The notes under the pieces were generated by a model. That model did no database searches and was not told the DNA's origin. It saw only the letters and a list, made by a program, of their open reading frames with translations. A stretch of DNA of 55,286 nucleotides. Source: Deltaproteobacteria bacterium (GTDB taxonomy: Bacteria > Myxococcota_A > Polyangia > Polyangiales > Polyangiaceae). The number at the start of each line of letters is the position of its first letter. The stretch's first letter is position 1. Location of the stretch: the NCBI GenBank assembly GCA_016209145.1, contig JACQWT010000394.1, forward strand, positions 1 through 55,286, in the 5' to 3' direction. Position numbers and translations under genes: made by a program. Positions 41,108-55,286 of the stretch are shown piece after piece.

Positions 41108-43291
41108 GTGAGGCAGCCGATGGCGGAGCAAGAGCGCGACGGCTCGCCCGGGACAAGCCTGTCCCGGGCCTGTGCGCTCGCCTGGCTCGGCTCGGTTGCC
41201 GCGGCGCTGCCGACGGCGGTGCGCACGAATCTCGCGGGCGGGGCGTGGGTCGAGGGATTGGTCGGCGCTGCTGCCATCTTCTGCTGCCTGCTGCTGCCCG
41301 CTGCCTGGCTTGTGCCGCGGGCGTGGCGCGGCCTGCGCGCCGTCGCCGGGCTGACGTCCCGCGCCGGCCCGCCTCCGGGGGCGCTCGTGGCCGGCATCGG
41401 GCTATGGGCGAGCTTCAGCGTCGCCGCCTTGACGGCGCTGGGAGCGCTGCTCAAGGCGACGACGCACCACCGCGGCCTGGGTGGCGCCGCCTTCGGCGCT
41501 CTCGGCCTGGCTCTCTGTCTCGCCGCGGCCGTGGCGGCGGGGCGGCTGGTCGGGGTCGGGCGACGTTGGATCGAACGTGGCGGGCCCCGGCGGCCGCTCC
41601 TCGCGGCCGCCGGCCTGCTCGTCGCCGGACCGCTCCTGCTGAGCGCCCTGCCGCTTGGCGGCTTCGGTGCCGGGCTCGGTCCGGCGGGCGCTCCGATCCG
41701 CGCGGCGCTGGTCGACGGCCTGCTCGCCGCCGTGGTGCTGGCTGCGCTGCTGCGGTTCAAGGTATTGGATCGGTCGGGGCGGGCGGCGCGCGTGGCTGCG
41801 CCGGCGCTGGTCGCCGCGACGCTGGTCGGCGGCTTCGGGCGCATCGAGCAGAGCCCGACCCTCGCGCGCGCCATGCGCGCCGGCGGCGGGCTGCCCGCGG
41901 CCGTGCTCTGGCTGTTGCAGGCGTGGGCCGATCGTGACGGCGACGGCGCTGCCGCGCACTTCGGCGGCGGGGACTGCGACGAGGGCGACCCGCACCGCCA
42001 TCCCGGGGCGGCCGATCGGCCGGGAGACGGCATCGATTCGGACTGCGACGGGATCGACGGACCGGCGGCCGCGGCGGCGTCTGCGGCCCGGTCGCCGGCC
42101 ACGGCGTCGGCGAGCGGATCGCCGGCGACTTCGGCCGCCACGTCGGCATCGCCGCGCGCGGCCTCCGCCTCCGCGCCGGCCGGCGAGCGAGTCGACATCA
42201 TCCTCGTAACGCTCGACACGGTGCGGGCGGACCACACCTCGGCCTACGGCTACGGCAAGCCCACGACGCCGGCCCTGGCGGCGCTCGGCGAGCGGGGCGT
42301 GCTGTTCGAGCACGCCTACGCCGCCGGCTGCGACATGCCGCAGGCGCTCGCGCCGCTCATCTCCGGCCGGCCGCTGGGCGAGACACCGCACAGCCGCGAA
42401 GAGTGGCCGTACGTCAAGCCCGAGACGGACACCGTGGCCGAGCGGCTCGGGCGCGCCGGCTATGCCACGGCGGCCGTCGTCTCGTTCACGTGGCTGCGCC
42501 AGGACAAGGGCGTCAGCCAGGGCTTCGACTACTTCGACGAGTCGCCATTTCGCGCCGATCATCCCGAGCGCAAGTCCACGGGACAGCGTGCCGGCGAGGC
42601 GGCCACGGCGCTGTACCGGCGCCTTGGCGCCGGAAGCCGGCCGCTGTTCTTGTGGCTGCACCTTTTCGACGCCCACGAGAAGTACCTTGCCCATCCGGGC
42701 CTCGACTTTGGCCCGGGCCCGTCCGGGCGCTACGACGCCGAGGTGGCCTTCGTCGATCGCCAGTTGGCCGCGCTGCGCGCCGTCGTCGACGCGGGGCCCC
42801 GGGCTGCCCGAACGCTATGGGTGGTGCACGGCTCGCACGGCGAGGGCTTTGGCGAGCACGGCGCTTTCGGCCACGGCCGCGAGCTGTACGACGAGGCGAT
42901 TCGGGTGCCACTGGTGGTCGCGGGCCCGGGCGTGCGGCCGGGCCGCTACGGGGCCGCCGCCGTGGGCACCCTCGACATCGCCCCCACGGTGCTCGACCTC
43001 GCGGCGGCCTCCCGCGAGGGGCTCGGCGGCGAGTCGCTGCGTCCCCTGCTCCGCGGCGACGGCTCGTGGCGTCGCGGCGCCCCGCTGCTTGCCTCCTGTG
43101 CCGGCCGCACGGCCGTGATCGACTGGCCCTTGAAGCTGCTCTCCATCGGCCGCGGCCGGCGGCGCGAGCGGCTGCTCCTGTTCGATCTGGAGGCCGATCC
43201 CGGCGAACAGCGGGATCTCTCGGCCGTGCGCGGCGCGGATCTCACGCGACTGGGCGCCCTGCGCGGCCGCGCGGCAAGCGGGGAGCGGTAG
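41108..43291 (+). CDS. membrane sulfatase/alkaline-phosphatase-fold protein with MopE-like segment
   Basis: DRDGDGAAAHFGGGDCDEGDPHRHPGAADRPGDGIDSDCDGIDG; VDIILVTLDTVRADHTSAYGYGKPTTPALAALGERGVLFEHAYA. Confidence 0.8.
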   Translation: MRQPMAEQERDGSPGTSLSRACALAWLGSVAAALPTAVRTNLAGGAWVEGLVGAAAIFCCLLLPAAWLVPRAWRGLRAVAGLTSRAGPPPGALVAGIGLWASFSVAALTALGALLKATTHHRGLGGAAFGALGLALCLAAAVAAGRLVGVGRRWIERGGPRRPLLAAAGLLVAGPLLLSALPLGGFGAGLGPAGAPIRAALVDGLLAAVVLAALLRFKVLDRSGRAARVAAPALVAATLVGGFGRIEQSPTLARAMRAGGGLPAAVLWLLQAWADRDGDGAAAHFGGGDCDEGDPHRHPGAADRPGDGIDSDCDGIDGPAAAAASAARSPATASASGSPATSAATSASPRAASASAPAGERVDIILVTLDTVRADHTSAYGYGKPTTPALAALGERGVLFEHAYAAGCDMPQALAPLISGRPLGETPHSREEWPYVKPETDTVAERLGRAGYATAAVVSFTWLRQDKGVSQGFDYFDESPFRADHPERKSTGQRAGEAATALYRRLGAGSRPLFLWLHLFDAHEKYLAHPGLDFGPGPSGRYDAEVAFVDRQLAALRAVVDAGPRAARTLWVVHGSHGEGFGEHGAFGHGRELYDEAIRVPLVVAGPGVRPGRYGAAAVGTLDIAPTVLDLAAASREGLGGESLRPLLRGDGSWRRGAPLLASCAGRTAVIDWPLKLLSIGRGRRRERLLLFDLEADPGEQRDLSAVRGADLTRLGALRGRAASGER

Positions 43292-43361
43292 TCCGATCCT
43301 CGCGTCGAATTCGTGGCGAGCACTTGGCTGGCGGCCAGATCCGTGGTGAGGTAGCGGTGCC

Positions 43362-44396
43362 GTGGGCGAGCGAGCTTGGATCGTCGGGGCCTGTGGGATC
43401 TTCGTCGGGGCGGCCGCGCTCTTCGGAGTCTTTGTCTGGGCCACGCGCAGCATGCTGGCGCAGGGGGAGCGTACGGCCGAGCAGGACGGCCTGCGCGGGC
43501 CGCCCCAGCTCGGCCACACCTGGCGCCTGGTGCGCGGCCGGCACTGGCAGATCGTCTCGGCCGACTACGAGGATCCGGAGGCGACGGACGGGCGCGAGCG
43601 CACTCGCGGCGCTTGCCCGGTGGGCATGGTCGACGTCAAGGGCGAGATGAAGGTCGAGCCCAGCGACAACCCGTACAGCGGCAATACCATAGACGACTTG
43701 CAGAGGAAGACCTGCACCGACTGGATCAGCCGCGACTACCCGGAGCGCTGCCGCACTTTCGATCGGGAGGCGTGGCTGAAGCTCTCCGAGGAGCTCGCCA
43801 CCAGATCCATGCACTTCTGCATCGACCGCTTCGAGTACCCCAACCGCAGGGGGCAGTACCCGATGATCTACGCGTCCTGGTGCGAGGCGCGCGAGGAGTG
43901 CCAGGGGCAAGGGAAGCGGCTGTGCACCGAGGACGAGTGGACCTTCGCCTGCGAGGGCGAGGAGGCCATGCCCTATCCGTACGGCTACGAGCGCGAGCCG
44001 GACAAGTGCCCGGTCGATCGTTCCTGGCGGCCCTACAACCAGAAGGCGATGGTGCCTCGCGACGGCGACGCGGCGCGCTACGAGATGGACCGGCTCTGGC
44101 AGGGGGTGGCCTCGGGTGCGCGCCCCGGCTGCCGCAGCCCCTTCGGCGTGTACGACCTGACCGGCAACGTGGACGAGTGGACCGTGTCGGCGCGTCCGGG
44201 CGAACGCCCCTCGATCCTCAAGGGCGGCTACTGGGGGCCGGTGCGCACGCGCTGCCGGCCGAGCACGCGATCGCACGACGAGAACCACACCTTCTACCAG
44301 CAGGGCTTCCGCTGCTGCGCGGACGTGGGTGCCAAGATCCGCCGCGCCGAGGCTTCCGACCCGATGGCCGCCCCGCTTCCCCAGGCGCTGCCGTGA
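43362..44396 (+). CDS. SUMF1/formylglycine-generating-enzyme-family protein, membrane-anchored
   Basis: FCIDRFEYPNRRGQYP..GKRLCTEDEWTFACEGEEAMPYPYG..GVYDLTGNVDEWTVS..GFRCCAD. Confidence 0.85.
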   Translation: MGERAWIVGACGIFVGAAALFGVFVWATRSMLAQGERTAEQDGLRGPPQLGHTWRLVRGRHWQIVSADYEDPEATDGRERTRGACPVGMVDVKGEMKVEPSDNPYSGNTIDDLQRKTCTDWISRDYPERCRTFDREAWLKLSEELATRSMHFCIDRFEYPNRRGQYPMIYASWCEAREECQGQGKRLCTEDEWTFACEGEEAMPYPYGYEREPDKCPVDRSWRPYNQKAMVPRDGDAARYEMDRLWQGVASGARPGCRSPFGVYDLTGNVDEWTVSARPGERPSILKGGYWGPVRTRCRPSTRSHDENHTFYQQGFRCCADVGAKIRRAEASDPMAAPLPQALP

Positions 44397-46228: not shown

Positions 46229-46465
46229 AACCGGGACCGTCCGTCAAGTCCTTGCTGCTCCTCGGCAGCGGCGGGGCGTCTCGGGAACTGGGCCGGCTGC
46301 GCGCCCGCGACGCCGGCGAGCCGGGGGTACTCCCGGAACGCGACGAGCTCGAAGCGCGTGCGGATCTTGCCGGCCTCGTGACCCTCCCGCGGCCACACGT
46401 AGGTCGTCTCGCGGTACCCGTCCTCGATCTGCGCGCGGTGCGCAGACCGCGGCGCTCTCCAGTCG

Positions 46466-46789
46466 GTGGACGGGGCGTTCCGCGAGCTGCTCGCGGCCTA
46501 CGAGGACGCGGGCAAGAGCGTGTTCGCCTGGGCGCTCGCCAACCCGTCGCGCTCCGGGCCACGCTGCGTCGCGTTTCGCACCCCGCGGGGCGAGGCGCGG
46601 CTTGCGGCCATCGACGGCCGGCGGGTGAAGGCCGCCGGAAGGCTGGATCCGTCGAGCGGAACCGTGGAGCTGCTCACCTGCTATCGGGTGGATCGCAACC
46701 GGCCGCTCAAGTCGCACTGGCTCGAACTGTGCCGGGAGCGGGCCGGCCACAAGCGGATCGGGACGGCCATCGAGATCGGACTCGCGTGA
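46466..46789 (+). CDS. hypothetical protein
   Basis: coherent ORF FRELLAAYEDAGKSVFAWALANPSRSGPRCVAFRTPRGEARLAAIDGRRV. Confidence 0.45.
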   Translation: MDGAFRELLAAYEDAGKSVFAWALANPSRSGPRCVAFRTPRGEARLAAIDGRRVKAAGRLDPSSGTVELLTCYRVDRNRPLKSHWLELCRERAGHKRIGTAIEIGLA

Positions 46790-46845
46790 GCGGGACGGCC
46801 AACGGACACGGCAACCGCCGGAGCACTTGGGAGAGGACCTGGGAG

Positions 46846-48020
46846 ATGTGGCAACCGGACGACACGCTGCTCGCCGAGACCAGGGCGACCCTTGACGAGC
46901 AGCTCCGCAGCCTGTCGCAGGCCGACTGCCCGCCCGGCCCGGCGGCCCGCGAGGCGGCGCGGGGCGCCCTCGAGGCCGCCGGCACGCTTGCGTTTCTCGG
47001 TCTGGCGGACGAGGCGCAGCGCGCGCTGGCAGGAGCCGGCGTGCCGTTCGCGCGCGCGGCGCGGGAGCTGGTCGAGGGCCTCGACTCCGAGCCGCTCGAC
47101 CGGGCGCTCGGCGAGCTGCTCGAGCTCGCCCCCGAGCTCCAGCTCGCGTCGGACGACGAGCTCCCGGAGATCGAGGAGCGGATCGTGGACGCGCTCGGCG
47201 CGCGCGATGCGATGGAGCTCCTGCTCGCGGGCGCGGGCCTGATGCCGGGCGCCGCGCCCGCGCTCGGGGCCGACATCGAGTCCTCGATCGTGGCGTTCGA
47301 CGAGCTGCTGGCGCGCTCTGGCGGCTCGTGCCGCTCGGCTCGCGGCGCGCCGCCCGAGCGGCGTGGGCCGCGCCCGCGATGCGGCCGCGACTGTGGTGGT
47401 GGCACCGGGGCTCGGACCTGCCCCACACGGCGCTGTCCGATCTCGGCACGGCCGCGCAGCTCATCCGCATCTTCCCCGAGGCAAGGGAGGAGCTCGCGAG
47501 GCTGGTGCAGGCCGAGCGCGACCTCGATGCCCTCGTAAGGACGCCGCCGCGCGTGGCGACGGGCGGCGAGAAGGCAGGCCATGTGATCGCGCTGGTCGAG
47601 CTCGCGCTCCGCGACCTGCCCGCCAACGACCGCGGGCGCTTCGCCCGGCCTCTGCCCGTGCCCGAGCACCAGCCCCAGTTTGCAGCCGCGGCCCCCCAGA
47701 GCGCCGGGCCCATGACGGCGGAGTGGAGGGCGCTTGCAGGCAAGTGGTACGCCGAGATCGAGTGGCCTGCGCCTCCGGACGACGCGGCCGAGCGCGAGGT
47801 GGTGCTCGTGGTCTACGACGCGCCTGAGGATGCGGTGAGCGCGGTGCTGCTCGGCCTGGTCCGCACGCTCGACGGAAGCGGGACCCGGCGCCGGGCGCGC
47901 TTCCGGATCGGAGAGCTCCGCGCCCGGCGCGCGCAGGAGCTTGGCGGCCTCGTGCTTCTCGTGGGCGATCCGCCGTACGTCGAGCTCGGCGCGCTCCATG
48001 ACAAGGCCGTGCCGGGTTGA
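46846..48020 (+). pseudogene. hypothetical protein upstream of Lon-like gene, apparent frameshift near 47311
   Basis: MWQPDDTLLAETRATLDEQLRSL..SSIVAFDELLAR in one frame continuing as ALWRLVPLGSRRAARAAWAAPAMRPRLWWWHRGSDLPHTALSDLG in another. Confidence 0.5.
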
Positions 48021-48030
48021 GGGCGCTCTG

Positions 48031-48864
48031 GTGTCCAAGACCATCACGCGAGAGAGGTTGTGCCAACGGAGTTCCGGGGGATTGCGCGAGCTCGCCGACT
48101 GGCTCGGCCAAGCGCTCGCGGGCTACTGGCTCAAGACCGAGCTCCGTACCGAGCTTGGGATCGCGACGCCGAAGCCGTGGGCAGGGCGGCACGGTGCGGC
48201 GGTGGCGCTCTTCGCGCCGACGGAGCAGGTGGATGGTCTCGCGGAAGGGCTCCCGCTACCAATGCAATGGCGACGAGAAGCCGCCGACTCCGACATGGTC
48301 CCGGCCGGGCTGAGCACCGTCGCCGAAAGCGTCCGCCGGGAGCTCGGGATCGATGGCTGGGGCCTCGCGCTCGCCCGCGACCTCGACGACTACGACCTCT
48401 CCGAGCTGCCGCTTGCCGCGGAGTCGGCGTGGGCGGCGCTCGCTGCGGCGCTCGTGGTGGCTTGCGAGGGCGGCGCGGTGCGGCCGTGGGTATTCGCGAC
48501 CGGAGCGTGGGACGGTCACGGGATCGCGCGCGTAGAGCACATCAAGGCGAAGCTCGCGGCAGTGCGGAGCCTCGGCTGGGCGCCCGAGGGGCAGCGTCCC
48601 GTGCTGTGGGTGCCGGCCGGGAACTACGACGAGGCGCGGGCGGCTATCACGGACGAGGTCGAGCTGAAGTCCTATCCCGCGGGCGAGACGAAGGCTCGCC
48701 AAGCGCTCAGCGAGCACTTGTACAGCATCGAGGTGCCCCCGACCACGGACGAGCCGCTCGCGCGGCGGCGTGACTACGCCAATCGACCGTACTCTGCCGT
48801 TCCCGGTGTTCCGCGATGGCCGCGCGCTGTGGTTGCCGTTCGGAGGGGCAGGGGCTGGCCATGA
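48031..48864 (+). CDS. Lon-like (S16) protease-domain protein
   Basis: AAESAWAALAAALVVACEGGAVRPWVFATGAWDGHGIARVEHIKAKLAAVRSLGWAPEGQRPVLWVPAGNYDEA parallels Lon Ser and Lys motifs. Confidence 0.55.
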   Translation: MSKTITRERLCQRSSGGLRELADWLGQALAGYWLKTELRTELGIATPKPWAGRHGAAVALFAPTEQVDGLAEGLPLPMQWRREAADSDMVPAGLSTVAESVRRELGIDGWGLALARDLDDYDLSELPLAAESAWAALAAALVVACEGGAVRPWVFATGAWDGHGIARVEHIKAKLAAVRSLGWAPEGQRPVLWVPAGNYDEARAAITDEVELKSYPAGETKARQALSEHLYSIEVPPTTDEPLARRRDYANRPYSAVPGVPRWPRAVVAVRRGRGWP

Positions 48865-49713
48865 GTGAAAGGCGTCTGTACGTCCTCGAGGTGCTGACCC
48901 CGGTTCACGTGGGCTCGGGCATGCTGCTCCCGTCGAGCGAGGTTGCGTACGACGAGCGGGAGAACCGAAGCCACGTGCTCGACCTGGACGCAGCCCTGGA
49001 CGCGATCGGTCCTGAGGGCTTCCAGAGTGCCAAGGTCCCAGGGCCGAACGAGCTCCTGGCGCTGCTCCGGCGCCGCGGTGTCGCGCTGGACGCGGTGTGC
49101 TGGGAGTCCCTGAAGGGCCGCTTCACGGCAAGGGATCTGCGCCTGTGTGTGCGCGATGGGCGCGGGTGCCCCATTATCCCGGGCAGCTCCCTCAAGGGCG
49201 CGCTGCGCACGGCGGTGTTGGCGGGGCTCGCCTGGGACGCTGAGCGAGCGACGCGGACCGAGCGGGGTGAGGCAGCCGTGGGCCGCGCGCTGGCGTCGGG
49301 CGCCGCCGGGCCCTTCGAGACCGCCCTGCTCCGCCCCGACCTGCCAGAGCGGGGACAGCAGAGGCTCGACCCGCACCACGACCCTTTCAGGCTGCTCGCT
49401 GTCACTGACGCGACCTTCTCGTGCCGCGCGACACGAGGAACCCGACATCGCGTCCGGCATCCCGCTCCGAGCCGCCCGCGCGGCGGCGCAGACGCCGGCG
49501 GCCCGCATCATGGCGGAGCTCGCGGTGCTCAGGTCGCACGAGCTCGCGGGCCGGCTGAAGGACATCTGGGACCGCGCCTCCAGGCAGTGCGAGGATCCGG
49601 CGGATCGGCGCAAGGCGGCCGAGGCAATCCGAGACCGAATGCGGGAGGCGAACCTGCTCAAGAAGTGGAAGGACAAGGCATGGGTCGCCGAGTTGCTCGC
49701 CGTGCTCTCGTGA
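48861..49713 (+). pseudogene. CRISPR-associated RAMP protein, Csm5-like, apparent frameshift/junction near 49420
   Basis: YVLEVLTPVHVGSGMLLPSSE and CPIIPGSSLKGALRTAVLAGLAWD; C-terminal part AARIMAELAVLRSHELAGRLKDIWDRASRQ..LLKKWKDKAWVAELLAVLS in another frame. Confidence 0.72.
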
Positions 49714-49854
49714 TTCCTGGCACGCCCGCCGCGAAGGCCGGGACGCGGGATTCAAGGGCGGCGCAGAGGGGCGTCTACAGGTGACTGCCCGGTCGGCACG
49801 TAGAGGCCAGCCAAGGCGCGGCCGCCCCCCGGCTGAACGATGGAGGATCAAGAC

Positions 49855-50676
49855 ATGGCTAGCAACGTTCACGTAGTAAGCTGCGGCACGAGCCCCCTCA
49901 GTTGGCTCACGCGCACCGACCTGTGCCTGTCTGACGGCACGCCCTTCAAGGAGTTCGCCCGCAAGCAGGACGATCTCGCGCGCCGCCTCGGCGAGGACCG
50001 GGAGGCGAACGCGCGCGCCGAGCGGGCCGTGCACGACAAGCCGCGCGAGGCGTCGGCGGAGATCCACGCCCTTTGGGAGTACCTCGAGCGGCGCGAGGTC
50101 GACTGGGCCTACCTCGTGACCACCGAGACGCGGGCTTCGCAGTGCGCGGCCGCGTGGATCCGGAGCTACCTCGCGCGCGAGGCGAAGGTGGCCCGGGTCG
50201 ATCTCGGCACCAAGTTCGTGGGCTACGAGGCTTCCGACGACGACGACAACGACAACGGACGCCTGGCGGACTTCGCCGCGCGCCTCCAGTTGCTGCGCGA
50301 TCGCACGATGCGTTTCGTGGAGCAGCGCAAGGCCGCGGGGGATCGCGTCTTCATCGCCGCGCAGGGCGGCTACAAGCCGGAGACGGGCATCATGATGCTG
50401 GTCGGCGCCGACACCGGCACGCCCGTCTACTACCTGCACGAGGAGATGCGCCGGACGGTCACGCTCCCGGTCCTGCGCTACCGCGGCGATGTCGGCTGGC
50501 TGCGCGAGCTGATTGGTGAGGGCGCGTCCGGTCCCGCGCTCGCGGAGCTCAAGCGGGAACATGGTGCCGAGCTCGAGGAGGCCATTCGCTGCTACGCCGT
50601 CGAGGCTCGACGCGACGACACCGGGGCCGTGGTGCGCGCGAAGCTCACCGCCTACGGCAAGTCGCTCGTGCCCTAG
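49855..50676 (+). CDS. CRISPR-associated CARF-type protein, APE2256/Csm6-ring-nuclease-like family
   Basis: VHVVSCGTSPLSWL..DRVFIAAQGGYKPETGIMMLVGADTGTPVYYLHEEMRRTVTLP; GGAGG RBS at 49842. Confidence 0.72.
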   Translation: MASNVHVVSCGTSPLSWLTRTDLCLSDGTPFKEFARKQDDLARRLGEDREANARAERAVHDKPREASAEIHALWEYLERREVDWAYLVTTETRASQCAAAWIRSYLAREAKVARVDLGTKFVGYEASDDDDNDNGRLADFAARLQLLRDRTMRFVEQRKAAGDRVFIAAQGGYKPETGIMMLVGADTGTPVYYLHEEMRRTVTLPVLRYRGDVGWLRELIGEGASGPALAELKREHGAELEEAIRCYAVEARRDDTGAVVRAKLTAYGKSLVP

Positions 50677-51480
50677 AACGCCGGGGCCCACGCGCCCGGC
50701 CCACGCGGCGCGGTCGCTCCCGCCAGCCCCGCCAGCCCCGCGGCCGCCGCCGTCACCGCCCGCCCTGCCGCCTCGTAGCCCCACGCCGTCCTGCGCACTT
50801 GGCCTCCGAGCTCGAGCTCCAGGAGCGCGGCCGAGACGGCGCCCGCGGGCAGGCCGGTCGCCTGGCACAGCCCATCAGTGTGCCAGCCACCGCGGCCGCC
50901 CATGGCCCCCAGCACCGCGCTGGCCTCGGCCGACAACGCTCCCGGCCATGACCCACCTTGGGTCATCGGCCCCGCGCCGCCGGCCAGCGGGTCGACCAGC
51001 AGCACCCCAGCCGCGTCGTAGAACCGCAGCTCGCCGTCGGCGTCGCCCTCGATGCGGAGCTTGCCCTCGTGCAGCAGGGCATGGTGCGTTGAGCACAAGC
51101 AGACGCACCCAGCCCGCGAGTGCTCCCCGCCCAGGGCCTGGGGCCGGATGTGATGCACTTCGACGTAGCGCCGCCGGGTGCAGCCAGGTGCCCGGCAACG
51201 GCACCGGTCCCGCAGCTTGACCGCCCGGCGCACCGCCGCCGGCAACTGTCCGCCACGCTGCACCACCCGGCCATCGGTCTCAAGGTCGCGCACCCGCGCG
51301 CCGCAGCCGAGCCGCGCCGCCGCCTCCGGAGCGAGCTCCACCGCGCCCGCGCCCGTCTCCAGCTCGGTCTGGCCGCACTGCCGGCATTCGTAGAGCACCA
51401 CCGTACGCTCCGGCTCCGCCGCCCCCTCGGCGCCCTCGGCCTGGTGCGCCAGGGCCTCGCGTGCCACCTCTCGCTCGTCA
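50673..51480 (-). pseudogene. HNH endonuclease, 5'-truncated (DUF222/13E12-like C-terminal part)
   Basis: RRAVKLRDRCRCRAPGCTRRRYVEVHHIRPQALGGEHSRAGCVCLCSTHHALLHEG; no credible N-terminus upstream of about 51480. Confidence 0.7.
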
Positions 51481-51507
51481 CGGGCGCGCGGGCGGATCTG
51501 GTGCGCG

Positions 51508-52316
51508 TGAGCGGCGGCGCCGAGCGCGCGTGCCTGGTGGACGACAGCCCCCTGCGGGCGCGCTGGCTCCTCGGCGAGGCGGACCGCGCCTGGCGCAGGT
51601 TCGGCTACGCGGAGGCGGCCGCGCTGCTCGAGCAGTGCCGCCGCCAGGATGCAGCCGTCGACCGGGCCCTGCTCCTGAGCCGCGGCTTCGCGGCCTGGGA
51701 CCGGTTCGACCACGAGGAGGCGTACCAGAAGCTCCGGGAAGCAGCGGGTGGGGGGCTGCCCGAGTGGGTTCTGCCGGCACTCGGCGAGCTGCGGCGCGGC
51801 CGCGAGCAGGCCACCGAGAGGTCGGACGCGTACCGGCTCTGGGATCTGTGGCTCACGGCCTGCCGCCGCGCGGAGGCACAAGCCTACGATGTCGGTGTGC
51901 TCCTGCTCTACCGGTGCCTGGAGGCCATGGCGCAGTGGACCTTGCGCTGGCACCACCACGTCGACACGGGCGACGTGGCGCGCGACGAGGCCGAGCGGGT
52001 CGGCATCGCCGACCTGACCGCCCCCGACCACCACGGGCGGCTCGTCATGTCCATGCACAAGGCATGGAGCGCCGTTGCCCGGCTGGGCGGACCGCTTGCC
52101 GAGGTCGGAGCGAGGACCGACGAGCGCAGGCGGGATTTCGCCGACAGGCGCAACCACTCGCTGCTTGCGCACGGTGAGACGCCCCTTCGCGAGGAGCACT
52201 TCCGCAGCGCCCGCGAGCTCCTGGAGCGCGAGGCCATGGGACACTTCCGCAAGGTGGCGTTCAAGGGTCGCGAGCCGTACCCGCAGCTTCCCACGGCGAT
52301 CCCGCCCGTGCGGTGA
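51508..52316 (+). pseudogene. CRISPR-associated TIGR02710-like protein, HEPN part only (CARF N-terminus missing)
   Basis: RARWLLGEADRAWRRFGYAEAAALLEQC..VLLLYRCLEAMAQWTLRWH..RRDFADRRNHSLLAHGETPL (RN-x4-H HEPN motif). Confidence 0.62.
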
Positions 52317-52426
52317 CGGCCAGTGCCGGCTCGCCGGGCTCCCCCGGGGCGCTCGCCCGGCCGCCTGTCAGGATCCGGGCGCCTGCTGCGTCTCCTCTGT
52401 GGAACAGCAGAGCGGAGGCAGCAAGA

Positions 52427-53748
52427 TGAGCACGAGCGCCGAACCCGTCGCGACCCTCACGGCCGAGTCGCTGCTCGGCACGCTGGCGGCGGCCAAGAAG
52501 CGCCGCGACTGGGAGGCCATCGCCCGGCACGCGGCCGAGGTGCCGGAGCAGCTCGCGGGCGCGTGGGTGCAGGTCGCCGACGAGATCGGCTTCGCCCTCG
52601 GTCAGCTCCGCCGCACCGACGAGGCCGCCGCGCTGTTCGAGCGCGTGTACGTCGTGGCCCCGTCGCGCCGCATCGCCAGCGCGCTCGCCTACGTGTACTA
52701 CGACGCGCTGCTCGGCCGGCGCACGCGCCAGGCCGAGCGCGGGGGCCAGGCGGCCGCGGCCGGGCGCGACCGGGAGGCCGACCGCAAGGCGTTCGCGCGC
52801 TGGATGGGCGAGGCCCTGCGCCTCGAGCCCCGCTCGATCAAGGATCTGTACCGGCTTGGGGTGTTCGAGGCCCAGGTCGAGAGCCGTCATGACAAGCCGG
52901 CGCTGCGCGCGTTCGTTGCGGCCATCGAGAGCTACCGGGCGCTGCCGGCCGACGAGCGCCAGTGGCGCGGCGACCTGCGCAAGCCCTACGTCCGCTCGCT
53001 GTACGCAGGGGCGAGATCCGCGCTGCGCCTGAGCGATCTCGACCGCGCCCGCCGGCTGTCCTTCGACTGCATCCGCGAGGACGAGCAGACGGACCACGTG
53101 GCGCCGGTGCACAAGCTCTACCTCGCCGGCAAGATCTGCGCCGCGCTCGGCCGCAGCGCGGACGCGGAGCGGGCGTATCGCAAGGCCCTGGCGGCCAAGG
53201 GCCCGCCCGAGCGCGACTACGTCCACGCCGCCCTGGCTGCGCTGGCGCTTGCCACGGGCCGCGCCGAGGACGCCGAGCGCTGGATCGAGGCCAACGTGCC
53301 GCCGCATCGGCGCAAGCCCGTGCTGTGGCGGCTGGTGGGCGACGTGAAGGTGGCGCGCGGCCGCGGGCGCGAGGCGCTGCTCGCCTACCAGAACGCGCTG
53401 CGCAAGGACCGGGCCGGCCGCCACCTGACGCTCACGGCGATGGGCGCCCTGGAGCTCGCGGCGGGCAACGCGCAGAAGGCGGCCGAGCACTTCCGCCAGG
53501 CCAACGACTTTCGGCGCCGCAAGTACCTCTCCGAGCACCTTCCCGCGCTCGACGGGCTGGCGACCGCGCTTTGGGCGCTCGGCCGCGACCGGGACGCTGC
53601 CGACGCACGGGCCGCGGCCGAAGGGCTGCGCGAGGGCCGGGCGGGCCGCGGCAGGCCGGGGCCGGGCGGGCTCGCCTCGGGGCGCGCCGTCGAGCCGGCC
53701 AGCGCGGACGACGCGCCCGCCGAGGACGAGGCCGCCGAGCAAGGGTGA
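52427..53748 (+). CDS. TPR-repeat protein, upstream of primase gene
   Basis: LYLAGKICAALGRSADAERAYRKALAAKGP, LVGDVKVARGRGREALLAYQNALRKD. Confidence 0.8.
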
Positions 53749-53771
53749 CAAGCGAGGAGCGGGGACGCGTG

Positions 53772-55286
53772 ATGCCGGCGATGGAAGATCCTCTCGAGGC
53801 GGCGCGCGCGGCGCTCTCCGGCAACGAGCCCGAGCACGTCGCCGAGCTGTGGCGCGAGGCCGATGCCCGGGCGCTCGATCCCGGCCGTCGCTTCGAGTGG
53901 CTGCTGCTGCTGCTCGAGGCCGGCGACGCCGCCACGGCGAGCGCAGCGGCCGGAGCGCTCGCCGGCACCGAGTGGGAGGCGCGGGCCGCCGCCCTGCTCG
54001 AGGCCGGCGAGGCCGATGACACGCCGGCCGGCGCCGAGCCGGCCGAGGACGACGTCGAGGTGGACGAGGTGCTCAGGCTCGCGGCGCCCGACACCGACGC
54101 CGCGCTCGTCGAGCGCTTCCTGCGCTGGTTCGGCGGTCGCAAGGATCTGCACGCGCGCCAGTGGTACGACGAGCGGCGGCGCCGCTCCGGCTACCGCCTG
54201 GTCGAGGAGCCGCTCACGGCCGAGGTCGCCCGCCTGCACCTCGCCGGCCGGCTCACCCTGGGTCAGTACCTGCTCTTCCCCGACGGGAGCTGCGCGTTCG
54301 GCGTCGTCGATCTGGATCTGTCCGCCAGTGCGCTCGCCGAGCTGCGCGCCACGCGCGGCGACGCGGTCCGGCCGGTCGAGCACGGGCCGCTGCGCGACTA
54401 CGCGCTGCGGCTGGTCGAGGCCGCGCGGCGGCTCGGGCTGGGGCTGTTCGCCGAGGACAGCGGCGGCCGTGGCCTGCACCTGTGGCTGTTCTTCGAGCCG
54501 CGGCGGCCGGCGCGCGCGGTCCGCGCGCTGCTCGGGCAGCTCGTAGTAGCCGCCGGGAGCCAACCGCCCGATGTCGCGGTCGAGATCTTCCCCAAGCAGG
54601 ACCGGCCGGGCCCGAAGGGGCTGTCGAGCCTGGTCAAGCTCCCGCTCGGCATCCACCAGGCGACGCTGCGGCGTTGCGCGCTGCTCGACGAGAAGCTCGA
54701 TCCCGTCGAGGATCCCTGGGCGGCGCTCGATCGGCTGCGCGCCGCGGCGCCCGACGTCGTGGACGACGTCCTCGGCCGCCGACTGGTGATCATGCCGACG
54801 CCCTGCCGCTGCCCGAGCTGCCCGCCGTGCCGAGCGCCCGCGGTCTGGCGGAGGCGCTGCGCGCCATCGAGCCCGGCAGGCCCGAGCGGGCGGCGTGCGA
54901 GGCCATGCTCGCGGGCTGCGCCGTGCTCCGGCGCCTGGTCAAGATCGCCTACGCCGAACGGCGTCTGGATCCGGCCCAGGCCCGCGCCGTGGTCTACACG
55001 CTGGGTCTCGTCGGGCCCGCCTGCGCGCTCGCCGACGAGATCTTCGACACGGCCGGGGCGTCACGCAAGGAGCTCGGCCGGGCGCGAGCCGGCCTGCCCT
55101 CGCCCGCCGGGTGCAAGGGGCTGCGCCGGCTTGCCCTGGCCGGGCCCCCCGACTGCCCGTGCCCCGAGCTGAGCGAGGCTCAGCCCTACGCGAGTCCGGC
55201 CCTGTTCGCCGTCGGCGCGGCGCCGCCCTCGCCGCCTGCCTGGGCCCAGTTCGGGCCGTTCCTCGAGGGCGTCACGGATCAGGCCG
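53772..55286 (+). CDS. archaeo-eukaryotic primase-polymerase (CAPP/TOTE-like), frameshift near 54797, runs off window
   Basis: FGVVDLDLS, EDSGGRGLHLWLFFEPRRPARAVRALLG, VEIFPKQDRPGPKGLSSLVKLPLGIHQ; Cys-rich C-term CEAMLAGCAVLRRLVKIAYAERRLDPAQARAVVYTLGLVG..CPCPELSEAQPYASPALF in next frame. Confidence 0.78.

What the first reader, a model, noticed from the sequence alone, without database searches (positions are those of the whole stretch)
46400..55286. Fragmented type III CRISPR-like locus combining Lon-like protease, Csm5-like RAMP, CARF, HEPN and Prim-Pol
Seen: same-strand genes with motifs for a Lon-like protease (48031), a Csm5-like RAMP (48861), an APE2256-type CARF protein (49855), a RN..LAHG HEPN protein (51508), a TPR protein and an AEP primase. 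No array, Cas10, Cas1 or Csm3/Csm4 is visible inside the window. Known: type III CRISPR loci use cyclic-oligoadenylate-sensing CARF proteins and sometimes carry Lon proteases or CRISPR-associated primase-polymerases. Inference: either the left end of a larger locus continuing past 55286, or a decayed or repurposed locus that combines protease and Prim-Pol modules.
Basis: partly seen in the sequence, partly recalled or inferred. Interest (0 to 1): 0.88.

Follow-up and report, generated by a model that had tools for sequence, protein, structure and literature searches.

The report
Worn-down type III CRISPR locus remnant
This is the battered left part of an ordinary bacterial type III CRISPR immune locus: several of its genes are cut short or frame-shifted, and the part that would carry cas1, cas2 and the CRISPR array lies beyond the end of the contig, so it is mainly a case of decay plus a broken assembly, not a new system.

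Summary
The gene calls hold up. On the + strand at 46466-55286 lie a Lon-type protease of the CARF-Lon family, a Csm5 RAMP, an APE2256/Crn1-type CARF protein, the HEPN half of a Csx1-type CARF-HEPN protein, a TPR protein and a CRISPR-associated primase-polymerase (CAPP). No array, Cas10 or Cas1 is in the window, and the contig ends at 55286 inside the CAPP gene.

(1) The locus continues: in all 7 relatives whose contig runs past CAPP, cas1 and cas2 follow at once, with a CRISPR array in 6 of 7; the TPR gene precedes CAPP in 6 of 6. (2) It is decayed: the gene upstream of Lon and CAPP are frame-shifted, Lon lacks its C-terminal CARF, Csm5 is cut to about half length, and CARF-HEPN has lost its CARF exactly where a multicopy HNH element begins. 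No Cas10 and no other RAMP is in the assembled genome (92% complete), whereas 7 of 8 close CAPP relatives have Cas10.

"Repurposed" is not supported. CARF, HEPN, Lon and CAPP are all known type III accessories. A side lead: relatives of the gene upstream of Lon sit between sigma-factor and Lon-TPR protease genes outside CRISPR loci.

The parts
46466..46789 (+). orfA, small protein of unknown function; 23 residues near its C-terminus are 52% identical to a small ORF between a sigma-factor gene and an orfB homologue in L141
   Evidence: (E 3e-5); no convincing Pfam/NCBIfam/PADLOC family
46846..48020 (+). orfB, broken by a frameshift near 47320-47330; its relatives lie between a sigma-70-type gene and a Lon-TPR protease gene (L141, L142); candidate anti-sigma or protease-substrate partner
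   Evidence: 34% identity over 232 aa across the frameshift to one unbroken ORF in L141 (1e-28)
48031..48864 (+). Lon-type protease of the CARF-Lon family; Ser132-Lys174 dyad kept; C-terminal CARF sensor missing
   Evidence: profile positions 25-240 of 408; alignment; homology ends near 48790; CARF matches at about residues 280-418 of the full-length L108 protein; S132, K174 invariant
48861..49713 (+). Csm5 (type III-A/D RAMP), N-terminal 188 codons open, then frame change near 49424; at most about 283 codons against 570-584 in two class relatives
   Evidence: tail 49426-49710 matches nothing
49840..50676 (+). APE2256 / CARF7 protein (278 aa, possible start ATG 49855), intact; Crn1-type ring nuclease candidate with the GGYKPET lysine motif
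   Evidence: (aligned over residues 9-240 to 3qyf and 62-240 to 7pq2, KPE motif shared)
50736..51468 (-). HNH element fragment (multicopy in this genome), truncated at its 5' side, lying between CARF and HEPN genes
   Evidence: 13 hits in own genome; similarity to other copies ends at 51468/51469 in three copies; L040 and L045 continue beyond
51469..52316 (+). 6H-HEPN half of a Csx1-type CARF-HEPN ribonuclease (TIGR02710/PDLC01796); N-terminal CARF lost at the HNH junction; RNHSLLAH motif kept
   Evidence: model 115-378 of 384; 149-399 of 401; L075 and L077 match from position 3 to 399 of 401
52426..53748 (+). TPR protein, intact; CAPP partner gene
   Evidence: (48-51% identity to the gene upstream of CAPP in L053, L055-L059)
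53772..55286 (+). CAPP (AEP-TOTE primase-polymerase), frameshift near 54803, runs off the contig
   Evidence: (five homologues read straight through the frameshift; 7nqd/7nqf; C-terminal part, PrimPol 7.7e-9)

Best explanation
A type III (Csm, III-A/D) CRISPR-Cas locus in decay, cut by the contig end. Originally: the Cas10-Csm complex detects phage RNA and makes cyclic oligoadenylate; CARF-Lon (a protease signalling branch with orfA/orfB) and CARF-HEPN (RNA cleavage) answer to it; the stand-alone APE2256 CARF (Crn1-like) degrades the messenger; TPR-CAPP-Cas1-Cas2 acquires new spacers into an adjacent array. Shown here: family identity of the genes, the conserved TPR-CAPP-cas1-cas2-array order in relatives, the lesions, and the absence of Cas10 and other RAMPs from the assembled genome. 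Inferred: the functions (from characterised relatives), and that cas1-cas2-array follow past 55286. The signalling arm can hardly work as it stands, because Cas10 is not found and both effectors lack their sensor.
For: Family matches. Gene order in relatives: TPR upstream of CAPP in 6 of 6, cas1 and cas2 directly downstream in 7 of 7 whose contig reaches that far, array in 6 of 7; type III-B effector genes upstream in L055. Cas10 in 7 of 8 close CAPP relatives, none in this genome; only one RAMP in this genome. Lesions: CAPP frameshift against five homologues; orfB frameshift against one unbroken homologue; Lon and HEPN lack CARFs that full-length relatives have; HNH junction exactly at the HEPN break. 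Ordinary genes on the same contig (RuvB, S1, permease, ABC1 kinase) cover their profiles end to end, and composition is uniform along the contig.
Against: The genome is a draft of 596 contigs, 92% complete and 8% contaminated, so missing Cas10/Csm2-4/Cas1 may be unassembled rather than lost, and frameshifts or junctions may be assembly errors; read coverage could not be checked. APE2256 CARF and TPR are intact, and the catalytic residues of Lon and HEPN are kept.
Confidence: 0.8

Rival explanations
1. An intact, working type III locus whose apparent frameshifts and truncations are assembly errors of a fragmented draft genome; Cas10, Csm2-4, cas1, cas2 and array are simply on missing stretches.
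For: 596 contigs; HNH copies often sit at contig ends, so the assembly breaks at them; 7 of 8 close relatives have Cas10.
Against: Five lesions within 9 kb, while sampled genes on the rest of the contig are whole. Missing Lon-CARF and HEPN-CARF parts are domain-sized losses, not single-base errors. The HEPN break falls at the boundary of a repeated element, and another copy (L041) has the same boundary.
Confidence: 0.13
2. A repurposed locus: sensor-less Lon and HEPN enzymes, with the separate APE2256 CARF protein acting as their messenger sensor in trans, and a Prim-Pol used outside adaptation.
For: Lon Ser132-Lys174 and the HEPN motif are kept; an intact CARF protein lies between them.
Against: No Cas10 found to make messenger; orfB and CAPP frame-shifted; no class relative has this CARF; the HEPN start coincides with an element junction, not with a domain design.
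Confidence: 0.03
3. Chimeric contig: the left part (Lon, Csm5, CARF) and the right part (HEPN, TPR, CAPP) come from two places and were joined through the repeated HNH element.
For: HNH copies are multicopy and lie at many contig ends.
Against: Both sides are type III CRISPR genes on the same strand; other copies are only about 70-90% identical to this one; composition is uniform.
Confidence: 0.04

Closest known systems
CRISPR-associated primase-polymerase (CAPP type A, MpCAPP; PMC8211822; PDB 7nqd/7nqf)
   Same: AEP domain (E 1e-20 to a solved 'TPR_REGION' AEP domain, which I take to be MpCAPP's), C-terminal PriCT-like part, and in relatives an operon with cas1-cas2 next to an array
   Different: TPR is a separate upstream gene (440 aa) rather than an N-terminal domain; the window copy is frame-shifted
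CalpL/CalpT/CalpS protease-sigma factor pathway (PMC11417357)
   Same: Lon protease with Ser-Lys dyad; a gene directly upstream whose relatives sit beside sigma-70-type genes
   Different: CARF-Lon family, not SAVED-Lon; sensor part missing; no sigma gene in the window; orfB shows no recognised anti-sigma domain
Csx1 / TIGR02710 CARF-HEPN ribonuclease
   Same: 6H and HEPN parts, RNHSLLAH motif
   Different: CARF half missing
Crn1 ring nuclease (APE2256 / CARF7; PDB 3qyf, 7pq2)
   Same: stand-alone CARF, aligned over most of its length, KPE motif
   Different: 278 aa, slightly longer than the 250-aa limit used in the 2025 survey (PMC12409355); activity untested
Type III-A/D Csm effector complex
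   Same: Csm5 N-terminal RAMP
   Different: Csm5 truncated; Cas10, Csm2, Csm3 and Csm4 not found

Membership tests
Type III-A/D CRISPR-Cas | Cas10 | tested here: not met
   no PF22335 match in the assembled genome, 92% complete; present in 7 of 8 close CAPP relatives
Type III-A/D CRISPR-Cas | RAMP backbone (Csm3, Csm4, Csm5) | tested here: inconclusive
   Csm5 N-terminal half present; no other RAMP in the assembled genome
Type III-A/D CRISPR-Cas | CRISPR array and adaptation genes next to the locus | tested here: inconclusive
   none in the window, contig ends in CAPP; in relatives they follow directly
CAPP type A | AEP primase-polymerase domain | tested here: met
CAPP type A | operon with cas1 and cas2 | tested here: inconclusive
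CAPP type A | N-terminal TPR and C-terminal PriCT-like region | tested here: inconclusive
   TPR as separate gene; C-terminal part matches PrimPol profile after the frameshift
CalpL/T/S | Lon protease domain with Ser-Lys dyad | tested here: met
CalpL/T/S | SAVED sensor domain | tested here: not met
   family is CARF-Lon and the C-terminal sensor is absent
CalpL/T/S | anti-sigma and sigma partners | tested here: inconclusive
   orfB relatives lie between sigma and Lon-type genes in L141 and L142; no sigma gene in the window
Csx1/TIGR02710 CARF-HEPN | HEPN domain with R-X4-6-H motif | tested here: met
Csx1/TIGR02710 CARF-HEPN | N-terminal CARF domain | tested here: not met
   model positions before 115 (TIGR02710) and 149 (PDLC01796) missing
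Crn1 ring nuclease | APE2256/CARF7 fold with conserved lysine motif | tested here: met
Crn1 ring nuclease | cleavage of cyclic tetra-adenylate | not testable with these tools
   needs enzyme assay

The most novel reading that the evidence does not exclude
The orfA-orfB-Lon genes belong to a wider class of sigma / orfB / Lon protease cassettes in this class of bacteria, some with a CARF sensor and tied to type III CRISPR, others with TPR repeats and no cas genes nearby (L140, L142; L141 is on a short contig), i.e. a general protease-to-transcription defence module that CRISPR systems have borrowed.
Probability: 0.35. Interest if true: 0.5.

Novelty: new member of a known kind. Interest (0 to 1): 0.25.

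Why it matters
As found, the locus is one more type III CRISPR locus caught in decay, with a multicopy HNH element sitting at one breakpoint. It adds this lineage to the range of the TPR-CAPP-cas1-cas2 adaptation module. The more useful by-product is the set of sigma/orfB/Lon cassettes, which could show that the CalpL/T/S way of turning a protease into a transcription switch is not limited to SAVED-Lon or to CRISPR loci.

Tried and rejected
Extending the contig: not possible, it ends at 55286. Own-genome cas1 genes as the missing partner: two are Cas4-Cas1 fusion-type ORFs (C146, C25; 31-35% identical to the CAPP-type cas1) and two lie beside I-E-like repeats (C56, C389; no match); none is the stand-alone CAPP-type cas1. 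A Csm4 tail fused in front of Csm5: considered from the overlapping reading frame, but no resemblance to Csm4 tails of relatives was seen, dropped. Csm5 C-terminal tail as homologous to relatives: alignment no better than shuffled sequence, dropped. Structure of orfB2 without alignment: pLDDT 38, useless, so no fold search was run. Plasmids: none for Lon or CAPP, one weak CARF hit. Viral contigs for TPR: none. Genome-contig scan with CAPP gave only distant relatives of at most 35% identity. PADLOC CARF_LON search across the phylum rang in 235 of 379 genomes, mostly weak partial matches of the kind expected from housekeeping Lon or other CARF proteins; only four hits other than the window's were strong and near full length.

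Full report
OBSERVATION. The window is contig C327 of a 596-contig draft (7.93 Mb, 92.3% complete, 8.1% contaminated) and the contig ends at 55286. No CRISPR array was found in the window.

WHAT LIES TO THE RIGHT. The CAPP gene has close relatives (51-66% identity) in seven genomes of the same class plus a disrupted one in G224 (47%). In every one of the seven, whose contigs all run past CAPP (L052-L058), a stand-alone cas1 (53-58% identical to the L053 copy) and a cas2 follow directly, and six of the seven carry a CRISPR array within a few kb (family identity of Cas1 and Cas2). In all six contigs that reach upstream of CAPP (L053, L055-L059) the TPR gene comes first. In L055 the same contig carries Cmr6, confirmed by profile, genes read as Cmr1 and Cmr3 from their sequence and Cas10. 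Seven of the eight close CAPP genomes have Cas10; the eighth, G224, has a broken CAPP next to repeats, with no cas1 or cas2 match on its contig. So the window stops where cas1-cas2-array would be expected; that they are there is an inference.

WHAT IS BROKEN. CAPP changes frame near 54803; five homologues read straight through that point. orfB changes frame near 47320; a single unbroken ORF in L141 aligns across it, 34% identity over 232 aa, 1e-28. Lon aligns to full-length CARF-Lon proteins of 419-446 aa only up to about 48790; the CARF found at about residues 280-418 of the L108 protein is missing, while Ser132 and Lys174 are invariant. Csm5 keeps its N-terminal 188 codons, then changes frame; at most about 283 codons are left against 570 and 584 in L061 and L077. 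The HEPN protein starts at model position 115 of 384 (TIGR02710) or 149 of 401 (PDLC01796), whereas L075 and L077 match from position 3. Its homology begins at about 51469 (read from the translation), which is where similarity to other copies of an antisense HNH gene stops (51468 in L040 and L045, 51469 in L041). L040 and L045 resemble each other well beyond that base, so the window copy and the L041 copy are truncated at the same place. Intact are the APE2256 CARF protein and the TPR protein.

REAL DECAY OR POOR ASSEMBLY? Sampled genes elsewhere on the contig (RuvB, S1 protein, permease, ABC1 kinase, sulfatase) cover their profiles end to end, and tetranucleotide composition is uniform. Domain-sized losses are not single-base errors. 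Read coverage could not be examined, so assembly error remains possible for single lesions.

HOW IT WOULD HAVE WORKED. From characterised relatives: type III complexes make cyclic oligoadenylates; CARF-HEPN enzymes cut RNA on binding them; CalpL (SAVED-Lon) cuts the anti-sigma factor CalpT to free the sigma factor CalpS (PMC11417357, PMC11229360); Crn1 proteins of the CARF7 family degrade the messenger (PMC12409355); CAPPs form complexes with Cas1-Cas2 and are implicated in spacer acquisition (PMC8211822). In the window the first step (Cas10) is not found and both effectors lack their sensor, so signalling through this locus is unlikely now.

A SIDE LEAD. orfB has relatives in eight of 308 genomes searched, the window's own included. 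In L141 and L142 the relative lies between a gene with sigma-70 region 2 (2e-7 and 6e-5) and a protease-like gene with TPR-like repeats; the Lon_C domain was detected by Pfam only in the L141 copy (and in L075), and in L140 and L142 the Lon motifs were read by eye. No cas genes are visible around L140 or L142. Full-length CARF-Lon genes in L060 and L109 also have sigma-like neighbours (weak matches, 4e-4 and 5e-3), and L075 (a type III locus with a CARF-HEPN gene) has a sigma-like gene and a Lon-TPR gene together. This looks like a wider protease-sigma cassette; no biochemical evidence exists here.

VERDICT. A decayed, contig-truncated member of a known kind.

Noticed in passing
L141:215-3903, L142:4466-7964, L140:3760-6662: Cassettes of sigma-70-type gene, orfB homologue and Lon-TPR protease-like gene (no sigma gene visible in L140, which runs to the contig end), with no cas genes visible nearby in L140 and L142; possible CRISPR-independent relatives of CalpL/T/S.
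   Followed up: partly
L144 (own genome C370):2415-7345: A protein with weak similarity to the C-terminal half of orfB (E 1e-6) lies next to a large TPR protein whose C-terminal end (GHATVF) resembles CHAT proteases by eye.
   Followed up: no
window 50736-51468; L040-L051, L016: HNH gene family with 13 hits in this genome, several with stop codons and several at contig ends; the window copy and the L041 copy are truncated at the same base.
   Followed up: partly
L059 (G224:C445): A second decayed TPR-CAPP locus: CAPP with a stop next to CRISPR repeats at the contig end, no cas1 or cas2 on the contig, no Cas10 in the genome (84% complete).
   Followed up: partly
L075:5248-9344 (G308:C178): Type III locus with Cas10, Csm3-like genes, Cas6 and two CARF-HEPN-type genes, which also holds a sigma-like gene and a Lon-TPR protease gene.
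   Followed up: partly
L016-L019 (own genome C146, C25, C56, C389): The same genome carries other CRISPR-Cas loci: two Cas4-Cas1-type ORFs (C25 with a Cas3-like gene and a 72-73-nt-spaced repeat array) and two cas1 contigs with I-E-like repeats.
   Followed up: partly
window 41108-44396: Sulfatase with a MopE-type metal-binding motif followed by a formylglycine-generating-enzyme-like gene, both intact.
   Followed up: no
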